DNA of 64,000 nt from Bacteroidota bacterium (GTDB lineage: Bacteria > Bacteroidota > Bacteroidia > Sphingobacteriales > Sphingobacteriaceae), in contig JABDAU010000005.1 of the NCBI GenBank assembly GCA_013289045.1, positions 1 through 64,000 of the forward strand. Reading direction: 5' to 3'. The notes under the pieces were generated by a model, which was not told where the DNA came from, ran no database searches, and was given only the letters and a program-made list of their open reading frames with translations. This document shows positions 15,982 through 40,353 of the stretch, piece after piece. A program made the translations under genes and the position numbers. Each line of letters starts with the position of its first letter. Positions within the stretch are counted from its first letter, which is position 1.

Positions 15982-16136
15982 GTGGGGAGTGATTGGTGGG
16001 TAGTAGAATTACTTTGCGACTACCCGCGTTAGATTCTGTGTTAATATGCAAGTATTGAATTGATTTTTTTATTTTTGAGACTTAAGGCGGCTTTATGTCA
16101 GCCTGTTTAGGGCAGTCCTTCTATGAGGTGACTGCT

Positions 16137-17168
16137 CTAACTATTTTCGACCATTTCCTGTAAATAGCCTTTTTGATAAGGCTTATTGGTTTTGTAAATC
16201 GTGTAGGCCATTTCCAATAGTTTTCTTTGCACAGCTACTGCACCTTTCATTTTTATGCCGTTCCGGGATACCACCCTAACGAATACGGCCTTATACCTTT
16301 CAGAATGTCTTATGGCGGACAATGCAGGCAGGTGCATAGCCTTCCGCAGATGTTTATTCCCCCGTTTTGATATTTTGGGTTTGCCTTTGACCGAAGTGCC
16401 TGATTCTTTTTCCCTGACATCCAACCCGGCATAGCTGGTCAGTTGCTTTTTGCTCCGGATCAGTTCAAACCCGTTGGTCTCTGCCAGGATCACTGCTGCT
16501 GTCAGCAATCCGATACCGGGGATAGTGGTGATCATATCAAGCGCTGCTTTGACCCCCTTATCATTATTTATGGCTCCCCTGATCTCTGTCAATACCTCTT
16601 TGAGCTGGCCATCGACCATCTTTATCCTGTCCTGCATTCTGCGGATGGTATCATCTCCCGGAAAAGCTTCCGATAGTTCAGCATGTAACTGATTCTTGAT
16701 GATGGTTCTCTCCGTAACGAGCTGTGAGCGCTCACGGGTCAGTTGCCGCAGGCTTCTATATACCCGTTTTGGCGGCACCCAGTTATCCAGTTGCTTTTCC
16801 ATCCCGAACATGGCTATGGCCGCCGACATGGATTTGTCCGTTACCGTTTTGATTTCCAGTGTCCTGAAAAAGTTAGATATCTTATTGGGCATAACGATAC
16901 TGACCGAATAGCTTTTATCGAAAAGATAATAAGCCAGTGATTCATGATAAACACCAGTGGCCTCCATGACAAACCGCAACGGATAAGCTTGGTCAGTATG
17001 CTTGCTTATCCAGCTTATAAGCGCCATAAAACCACCTTTAGTATTGGCAAAAGTCTTATTTGCATATACAGTCATTGCTGCCATATCATCCATTTTGCCT
17101 AAGGATACCACTAACTCTTTTTGGGCTACATCGATACCCACTACCTGTTTTAATAACCTGTTTGTCAT
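16137..17168 (-). CDS. IS110-family transposase (DEDD N-terminal + Transposase_20-type C-terminal)
   Basis: VVGIDVAQKELVVSLG, FVMEATGVYHESLAYYL, TTIPGIGLLTAAVILAETN, LTSYAGLDVREKESGTSVKGKPKISKRGNKHLRKAM. Confidence 0.96.
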   Translation of the reverse strand: MTNRLLKQVVGIDVAQKELVVSLGKMDDMAAMTVYANKTFANTKGGFMALISWISKHTDQAYPLRFVMEATGVYHESLAYYLFDKSYSVSIVMPNKISNFFRTLEIKTVTDKSMSAAIAMFGMEKQLDNWVPPKRVYRSLRQLTRERSQLVTERTIIKNQLHAELSEAFPGDDTIRRMQDRIKMVDGQLKEVLTEIRGAINNDKGVKAALDMITTIPGIGLLTAAVILAETNGFELIRSKKQLTSYAGLDVREKESGTSVKGKPKISKRGNKHLRKAMHLPALSAIRHSERYKAVFVRVVSRNGIKMKGAVAVQRKLLEMAYTIYKTNKPYQKGYLQEMVENS

Positions 17169-17199
17169 TGATAAAAGTGTTTGAGCTTTTATAAGTGAA

Positions 17200-17365
17200 A
17201 ACCTTTCTTCGTCGTTCCTCCTGTCTGGTTATCCTGGATATACTGCTTAGCCGTATTCCTTACATTCTGTTCCAACTCAAAAAAGTAAAAGGATGAGGCT
17301 TTATCTAACGCTCAACATGCCTGTAGCTGTTTGGGATTGCTGCGCTCTCATCCTTTTCACTCATA
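17200..17365 (-). ncRNA. candidate bridge RNA of the IS110 element
   Basis: 11-bp stem AAAAGGATGAG/CTCATCCTTTT (17347-17357 / 17287-17297) enclosing GCAATCCC (17333-17340) and GCGTTAGAT (17303-17311), which match the two target halves; downstream ACAGAAT (17264-17270) and AGGAG (17218-17222) match the two element ends; exact RNA ends not determined. Confidence 0.75.
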
Positions 17366-17400
17366 AAATCTATGCAATATTATGCTTTTACAAACATAGG

Positions 17401-17475
17401 AGGGATAGTAGTGGAAAGCCCGGAGCGCAGCGAGGACTTGCAACGGATAGCCCGACCCACAGGGGAACGCCCTAA
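17401..17475 (+). repeat. dispersed repeat family C (possible Flavo-1-like), distal part split from its head by the IS110 insertion
   Basis: GGATAGTAGTGGAAAGCCCGGAGCGCAGCGAGGACTTGCAACGGATAGCCCGACCCACAGGGGAACGCCC; head CCCGCGTTAG at 16023-16032. Confidence 0.7.
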
Positions 17476-27175: not shown

Positions 27176-27285
27176 GGGCGTTGCCACAGCCTGCGCTGAG
27201 GCCCTCGAAGCGGCCCGCGCTATCCGTTCATACTGCACGAGGCCTTAGCCGCGAGGCCGGTATCCACTACTATCGCTAACGCGGG
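27176..27285 (-). repeat. dispersed repeat family C, inverted copy with intact head CTATCGCTAACGCGGG
   Basis: Reverse complement begins CCCGCGTTAGCGATAGTAGTGGATACCGGCC and ends GGCAACGCCC. Confidence 0.75.
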
Positions 27286-31789: not shown

Positions 31790-31873
31790 GCGTTAGGGGT
31801 AGTAGCGGGTACCGGCCTCGCGCTTAATGCCTGAAGGCGTATGAGCGGATAACCCGGGCCGCAGGCAACGCCC
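31790..31873 (+). repeat. dispersed repeat family C copy
   Basis: GCGTTAGGGGTAGTAGCGGGTACCGGCC...GCGTATGAGCGGATAACCCGGGCCGCAGGCAACGCCC. Confidence 0.75.
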
Positions 31874-39582: not shown

Positions 39583-39665
39583 GCGTTAGGGATTGCAGCG
39601 GATACCGGCCAAGCGCCTAAGGCCTGTGCAGTATGAGCGTAAAGCCCGGCCGCAGGCAACGCCCT
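39583..39665 (+). repeat. dispersed repeat family C copy; head GCGTTAGGGATTGC is the unoccupied best match to the IS110 guides
   Basis: GCGTTAGGGATTGCAGCGGATACCGGCC...GTATGAGCGTAAAGCCCGGCCGCAGGCAACGCCC. Confidence 0.8.
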
Positions 39666-39880: not shown

Positions 39881-39909
39881 CCAATTATAAACCTAAATTA
39901 TGAGAAGAG

Positions 39910-40025
39910 CTGTAGGAGAAGGAATCGAACCTCCACAGAGTGGTTATTCTCATTGCTGAGAGTTTCCCATAGTCTCCGCCACCGCGACAAGGAGGTGTGT
40001 CTGCCAAAAATTTCACCATCCTACA
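39910..40025 (-). tRNA. tRNA-like gene 2 (Leu-like D arm, anticodon-loop TTGTCGC, giant variable arm)
   Basis: Acceptor TGTAGGA/TCCTACA; D arm GTG-AAATTTTTGGCAGA-CAC; T arm GGAGG-TTCGATT-CCTTC; discriminator G; no encoded CCA. Confidence 0.65.
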
Positions 40026-40088
40026 TTTTAATAATTCTAAACCCGGTTTTCCCGCACTGTCTTTCAAATGCGGTCGGCTTAGAAATTG

Positions 40089-40201
40089 CTGTTGGGGAAG
40101 GATTCGAACCTCCACAGAGTAGTTAGCCCGCTTCGGGTTTCCTATGCTCTCCGCCACCGGGACAAGGAGGTGTGTCTGCCAAAAAATTTCACCACCCAAC
40201 A
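40089..40201 (-). tRNA. tRNA-like gene 1 (Leu-like D arm, anticodon-loop TTGTCCC, giant variable arm)
   Basis: Acceptor TGTTGGG/CCCAACA; D arm GTG-AAATTTTTTGGCAGA-CAC; T arm GGAGG-TTCGAAT-CCTTC; discriminator G; no encoded CCA. Confidence 0.65.
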
Positions 40202-40353
40202 TTGTTTTTTTCTTTAAAGAACGCTCAGCAATTGTCATTTGCTTAATACAAATCTAAAGCACTATTCATTTTCTTGCAAATATTTCAACGAAATAATTTT
40301 ATTTTTAGTTTTATTTTAATTAAACTTGTATATTAGTATAGAATTTAAAATTT

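What the first reader, a model, noticed from the sequence alone, without database searches (positions are those of the whole stretch)
39583..39596. Empty target site that fits the IS110 guides better than the occupied one
Read on the bridge-RNA strand, 39583-39596 is 5'-GCAATCC-CT-AACGC. The RNA loop reads GCAATCCC ... GCGTTAG, so the left half matches through GCAATCCC and the right half matches perfectly including the core. The occupied site has CTATCC. This suggests the element was programmed for this repeat class and predicts where it would insert next (core at 39588-39589).
Basis: partly seen in the sequence, partly recalled or inferred. Interest (0 to 1): 0.75.

Follow-up and report, generated by a model that had tools for sequence, protein, structure and literature searches.

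The report
RNA-guided jumping gene aimed at repeats
A soil bacterium (Mucilaginibacter) carries an RNA-guided jumping gene whose guide matches a short sequence repeated about 50 times in its genome; the flagged empty site is one of at least ten equally good landing places, and the jumping gene's enzyme, like all its close relatives, lacks one of four acid residues thought essential for cutting DNA.

Summary
39583-39596 (- strand) is GCAATCC-CT-AACGC, an exact match to the two target guides (GCAATCC, GCGTTAG) of the IS110 element at 16031-17402. The occupied site (ACTATCC-CT-AACGC) has two left-side mismatches.

The site is not special. It is the end of one copy of an ~80-110 bp mosaic intergenic repeat (GGGCGTT...ATCCCTAACGC). 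Of 47 copies collected, 10 carry the exact 14-mer, and the occupied site is another copy.

"Programmed for this repeat class" is supported. Sister elements with the same guide (M. gossypii, M. rubeus) sit in exact GCAATCC-CT-AACGC. A Mucilaginibacter genome with at least five copies has each in a different copy of the repeat. Over 20 distinct guides, right guides match their own flanks at 96/100 positions (swapped mean 33) and left guides at 107/140 (68).

"Predicts where it inserts next" is not supported: left positions 1 and 3 are loosely obeyed, and at least ten exact sites exist.

Programmed targeting of repeats by IS110 is known (IS621, ISPpu9). What is unusual is that the recombinase and all ~40 clade members examined lack the fourth acid of DEDD (IS621 D105, essential there), yet elements of this clade occur as multiple identical copies in guide-matched sites.

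The parts
39583..39596 (-). Empty target site GCAATCC-CT-AACGC, exact match to both target guides; core CT at 39589-39588
39583..39664 (-). Intact copy of the intergenic mosaic repeat GGGCGTTGCC...GGTATCCGCTGCAATCCCTAACGC that contains the empty site
16031..17402 (-). IS110 element, 1368 bp between the two CT cores (left core 17402-17401, right core 16032-16031); left end CCTATGTTTG, right end ACACAGAAT
16137..17168 (-). IS110-family recombinase, 343 aa; RuvC acids D13, E69, D111 present, fourth acid replaced by M114
   Evidence: Pfam PF01548/PF02371, NF033542 above cut-off, IS621 8wt6 E=3e-34, AlphaFold model to 8wt6/9t56 TM 0.77-0.79, residue alignment
17193..17361 (-). Predicted bridge RNA, two-loop fold (target loop, then donor loop)
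   Evidence: 27 of 43 consensus pairs with compensatory changes
17334..17340 (-). Left target guide GCAATCC (followed by C at 17333)
17305..17311 (-). Right target guide GCGTTAG (reverse complement CTAACGC)
17258..17272 (-). Conserved GAACAGAATGTAAGG of the donor loop; ACAGAAT is the left donor guide, matching the right end ACACAGAAT
   Evidence: assignment by comparison with IS621 architecture (inference)
17218..17224 (-). ACAGGAG, probable right donor guide, roughly complementary to CTCCTATG of the left end
   Evidence: sequence; inference
17401..17472 (-). Left part of the occupied repeat copy (GGGCGTTCCCC...ACTACTATCCCT)
   Evidence: near-identical uninterrupted twin at G000:C43 (L125)
16026..16030 (-). 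Right part of the occupied repeat copy (AACGC)
27176..27282 (+). Another copy of the repeat, variant end ATCGCTAACGC
31790..31873 (-). Another copy of the repeat, variant end ACCCCTAACGC

Best explanation
The site is an unoccupied copy of a dispersed intergenic repeat which the bridge RNA of the neighbouring IS110 element is programmed to recognise. The left guide GCAATCC pairs with the bottom strand and the right guide GCGTTAG with the top strand, so that the recombinase joins the circularised element at the CT core with no net target duplication beyond the core. The repeat gives the element many intergenic, probably harmless landing sites. Left positions 1-3 are loosely enforced and the right half is strict, so the element samples the whole repeat family. 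Shown: guides, flanks, repeat family, and guide-flank covariation across relatives. Inferred from IS621: strand pairing, circular intermediate and strand-exchange chemistry. The recombinase belongs to a Bacteroidota clade in which the fourth acid of the DEDD site is uniformly lost.
For: Exact site and guides. Ten exact 14-mers in the assembly and 47 repeat copies collected. The occupied site is itself an interrupted repeat, with an uninterrupted twin elsewhere. Same-guide elements in M. gossypii and M. rubeus sit in exact GCAATCC-CT-AACGC, and G108 has both a changed guide (CCTATCC) and a matching site CCTATCC. G077 has five left junctions in five different repeat copies, plus four right junctions. 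Over 20 distinct guides: right half 96/100 against 33 +/- 6.6 when swapped (0 of 20,000 as high); left half 107/140 against 68 +/- 4.9 (0 of 100,000 as high). Two-loop RNA with 27 compensatory pairs. Protein family and fold.
Against: No expression, circle or transposition data. Only one full copy of this element is in the assembly, which is 63.5% complete, so recent activity of this particular copy is not shown. The occupied site has a true A:A mismatch at position 3. Guide-flank statistics treat related elements as separate, and the left-half test picks the best of four offsets (the swapped null does the same).
Confidence: 0.9

Rival explanations
1. Chance resemblance: GCAATCCCTAACGC in the window happens to match the guide and has nothing to do with the element.
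For: The half-match GCGTTAG occurs at chance frequency in the window; with two mismatches allowed, one hit in 64 kb is not unusual (0.43 expected).
Against: Ten exact 14-mers in the genome where about 0.03 are expected; the site is in the same repeat class, at the same position, as the occupied site and as sister insertions; guides covary with flanks across the clade.
Confidence: 0.02
2. The perfect fit marks 39588-39589 as the preferred next insertion site, and the occupied site is an off-target or ageing insertion.
For: 14/14 against 12/14 guide match; in M. gossypii and M. rubeus the same guide sits in a perfect site.
Against: Ten equal sites and dozens of near-equal ones. In G077 (guide GCTATCC) the five sites are TCAATCC, GCCATCC, ACCATCC, CCAATCC and ACCATCC, so position 3 is always mismatched and position 1 is free. 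IS621 inserts mostly at sites with a guide mismatch: 129 of 173 sites, against 2 exact (PMC11208160).
Confidence: 0.12
3. The site was once occupied and has been vacated by scarless excision.
For: IS110 elements are described as excising scarlessly via a circle (PMC11208160), which would restore exactly this sequence.
Against: No trace distinguishes a vacated from a never-used copy; most repeat copies are empty, so parsimony favours never used.
Confidence: 0.04

Closest known systems
IS621 (IS110 group, E. coli) with its bridge RNA
   Same: Recombinase fold (TM 0.77-0.79), upstream bridge RNA with target loop then donor loop, CT core, 7+2+5 target layout, repeat (REP) target, natural target with a left-guide mismatch tolerated
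   Different: About 26-28% protein identity; other repeat; DEDD fourth acid D105 replaced by M/A/S/C/V throughout the clade; guide sequences unrelated
ISPpu9 / ISPpu10 / ISPa11 (IS110 family in Pseudomonas REPs; PMC1525189)
   Same: IS110 elements lodged at a fixed position in a dispersed extragenic repeat
   Different: Different phylum and repeat; guide-flank link here read directly and shown to change along the tree
REP / RAYT systems
   Same: Dispersed, extragenic, multi-copy short repeat
   Different: The Y1 transposase genes of this assembly are flanked by other repeats, not this one; tested single copies do not fold better than shuffles
TIGR-Tas nucleases
   Same: Distant relatives by profile and fold
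   Different: No TIGR array; a mobile element with recombinase ends

Membership tests
IS110 family (IS110 group) | RuvC-like (PF01548) plus Transposase_20 (PF02371) recombinase above curated cut-offs | tested here: met
IS110 family (IS110 group) | DEDD catalytic tetrad | tested here: not met
   D13, E69, D111 kept; fourth position is M114, and A/M/S/V/C in all clade members examined, D in all outgroup members
IS110 family (IS110 group) | Conserved SG serine of the Tnp domain | tested here: met
   S256-G257 invariant in alignment A3
IS110 family (IS110 group) | Long noncoding left end upstream of the gene with a two-loop bridge RNA | tested here: met
IS110 family (IS110 group) | Target guides match and covary with insertion-site flanks | tested here: met
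IS110 family (IS110 group) | Insertion without terminal inverted repeats or target duplication beyond a 2-bp core | tested here: met
   joined flanks equal an uninterrupted repeat copy
IS110 family (IS110 group) | Circular intermediate and RNA-guided recombination activity | not testable with these tools
   needs a bench assay
REP element (RAYT-linked palindrome) | Stable palindromic stem-loop | tested here: not met
   four copies fold no better than shuffles
REP element (RAYT-linked palindrome) | Flanks a Y1 (RAYT) transposase gene in the same genome | tested here: inconclusive
   not next to the three Y1 hits found, but the assembly is 63.5% complete

The most novel reading that the evidence does not exclude
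This element represents a Bacteroidota clade of bridge-RNA recombinases that transpose with a three-acid RuvC centre: the fourth acid of DEDD, whose mutation abolishes IS621 recombination, is absent from every member, and the second-shell role of that residue is carried by another group or dispensed with.
Probability: 0.6. Interest if true: 0.6.

Novelty: new variant of a known kind. Interest (0 to 1): 0.45.

Why it matters
As a target-site finding it is a clean natural example of programmed targeting: one genus contains related elements whose guides have been re-aimed at different dispersed repeats, giving ready-made guide-target pairs and in-genome evidence on which guide positions matter. 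The missing DEDD acid matters more. If these recombinases are active, as identical multi-copy elements in guide-matched sites suggest, the accepted catalytic tetrad is not universal for bridge-RNA recombinases, and the clade offers a direct test of what D105 does. It could also supply bridge-editing enzymes with a different active site.

Tried and rejected
(1) Chance match: rejected by genome-wide counts and sister insertions. (2) The backwards-read pattern control cannot be used, because the 14-mer is almost a mirror palindrome. (3) REP/RAYT origin of the repeat: Y1 transposases found, but beside other repeats; no stable fold. (4) attC-like site: end boxes have the opposite order to attC (by eye, from my own knowledge); dropped. 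(5) First left-guide alignment with three offsets missed the correct register for several loops; repeated with four offsets and the same null. (6) A relocated carboxylate at residue 105 (E/D in 34 of 34 clade members, G in most outgroup) as replacement for the lost acid: weakened, because L169 has S there and an outgroup member (L174) has D; kept only as a lead. (7) Rfam and ARAGORN on the whole window gave nothing. (8) A papers search for IS110 together with Mucilaginibacter found none.

Full report
What was checked. The finding names 14 bases at 39583-39596. Read on the - strand they are GCAATCCCTAACGC, exactly once in the window. The IS110 element it refers to lies at 16031-17402 on the - strand: recombinase gene 16137-17168 (Pfam, NCBIfam and PDB matches), left end CT-CCTATGTTTG, right end ACACAGAAT-CT, 1368 bp between cores. 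In its 230-base leader the target loop reads GCAATCCC (17340-17333) and GCGTTAG (17311-17305). Joining the flanks gives the pre-insertion site ACTATCC-CT-AACGC.

What the site is. The window lies in a Mucilaginibacter assembly (172 contigs, 63.5% complete; named relatives). The 14-mer occurs exactly ten times in it and in 64 of 151 genomes of the genus. Nearly every copy I collected (one clear exception, L127, lacks the repeat and looks like coding sequence) is the end of a mosaic intergenic repeat: head GGGCGTT[G/C]CC...GGGCT, several alternative middles, tail ATCCCTAACGC. Of 47 repeat copies, ten have GCA before ATCC; position 2 is always C, while positions 1 and 3 vary (copies were gathered within two mismatches of the 14-mer, so this census is biased towards the guide). 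The occupied site is also a copy, with a near-identical uninterrupted twin on contig C43 (L125). The window holds four copies, and five of its seven GCGTTAG hits are repeat ends or the guide itself.

Do relatives obey the guide? Elements 56-78% identical in protein were read with their flanks. M. gossypii (L059) and M. rubeus (L065) carry the same guide and sit in exact GCAATCC-CT-AACGC; their outer flanks are near-identical, so this is one event. G108 has guide CCTATCC and site CCTATCC. G077 has guide GCTATCC and five readable left junctions in five different copies of the repeat (TCAATCC, GCCATCC, ACCATCC, CCAATCC, ACCATCC) and four right junctions, three CTAACGC and one CTAATGC. G106 (L088), a distant branch, is at the same place in the repeat. 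Relatives elsewhere have other guides: GTTACTC/TTGCGAG in the TCGTTCCTCGCAATGAC repeat, TTGGTTA/CACAAAG in a third repeat, and so on. Over 20 distinct guides the right half matches its own flank at 96 of 100 positions, against 33 when swapped (0 of 20,000 as high), and the left half at 107 of 140 against 68 (0 of 100,000). On a protein tree the AACGC-directed lineages do not group; strongly supported branches force three changes, which may be gains or losses.

The element is programmed for this repeat class: supported. That the perfect match predicts the next insertion: not supported, because ten equal sites exist and G077 shows positions 1 and 3 to be nearly free. The paper on IS621 reports the same kind of behaviour: natural sites differ from the guide at position 4, and in an insertion assay 129 of 173 sites had that mismatch while two were exact (PMC11208160). 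Targeting of extragenic repeats by IS110 elements was already documented in 2006 (PMC1525189).

How it works. By analogy with IS621, and supported here by the two-loop consensus fold with 27 compensatory pairs, the left guide pairs with the bottom target strand, the right guide with the top strand, and the donor loop (ACAGAAT; ACAGGAG) with the ends of the circular element, with exchange at the CT cores. The pairing roles are inferred from the published system; the guide-target match is shown.

An unexpected feature. IS110 recombinases are defined by a DEDD tetrad; in IS621 mutation of any of D11, E60, D102, D105 or S241 abolishes recombination, and D105 acts through water molecules at the metal (PMC11208158). 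In the window protein D13, E69, D111 and the SG serine (S256-G257) are kept, but the fourth position is M114. All 34 distinct clade sequences have A, M, S, V or C there, and six more from other genera of the class have A, S or C (L167-L171, L176), while all 12 plus 7 outgroup sequences (28-40% identical) keep D. The register is fixed by shared residues on both sides (TD...I/L at +7, G at +11, E at +13). Members of the clade are present as identical copies in single-contig genomes, e.g. five in G009, five in G190 and three in G031, with flanks that fit their guides, so loss of the acid does not look like decay. An AlphaFold model (mean pLDDT 86) matches IS621 and ISCro4, but the tools give no coordinates, so I could not ask what fills the D105 position.

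Verdict. As a target site it is a further member of a known kind; the element itself is a new variant because of the three-acid active site. It works like an IS110 bridge-RNA element; strict membership fails on one naming feature, the fourth acid. Whether that variant has been described before was searched only in the held open-access library, where the papers read describe DEDD without mentioning an exception for IS110.

Noticed in passing
window 39909-40026 and 40089-40203, - strand: Two tandem tRNA-like sequences, about 7-bp acceptor ends and a GGTTCGA T-arm, in which the anticodon-arm position is a 4-bp CACC/GGTG stem with a 10-nt loop. The stem and loop together read ACACCUCCUUGUC, containing the anti-Shine-Dalgarno sequence CACCUCCUU. 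Present in 58 of 61 Mucilaginibacter genomes sampled (49 of 49 complete ones), usually as a tandem pair. Rfam tRNA 32.3 bits for one copy when searched alone; ARAGORN finds no tRNA in the window. Consensus fold. No description found in two paper searches. Possibly an RNA that binds Shine-Dalgarno sequences in a phylum whose ribosomes hide theirs; deserves its own study.
   Followed up: partly
window 16137-17168 (residue 114) and clade members L011-L028, L045-L055, L167-L171, L176: Loss of the fourth DEDD acid throughout a clade of mobile IS110 elements; described in the report.
   Followed up: yes
L147, L148, L149 (own assembly, contigs C133, C5:80308-80517, C66): Three Y1 (RAYT-type) transposase genes flanked by other palindromic repeats (GTGTTCCGATGGAACAC; GGTCAAGTGTCCACACTTGACC; GCGCAGGGTCCTCTGC), apparently separate REP families.
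   Followed up: partly
L083-L085 (G031), L077-L081 (G009), L063-L064 (G034), L068-L076 (G055, G043, G127): Related IS110 elements aimed at other dispersed palindromic repeats; flanks are shared beyond the 14-bp target, so each guide appears to be set to a repeat of its own genome.
   Followed up: partly
L080 (G009:C1:6014800-6017800): A copy whose right end is cut off by another sequence after ATTATTTGG, probably a later insertion.
   Followed up: no
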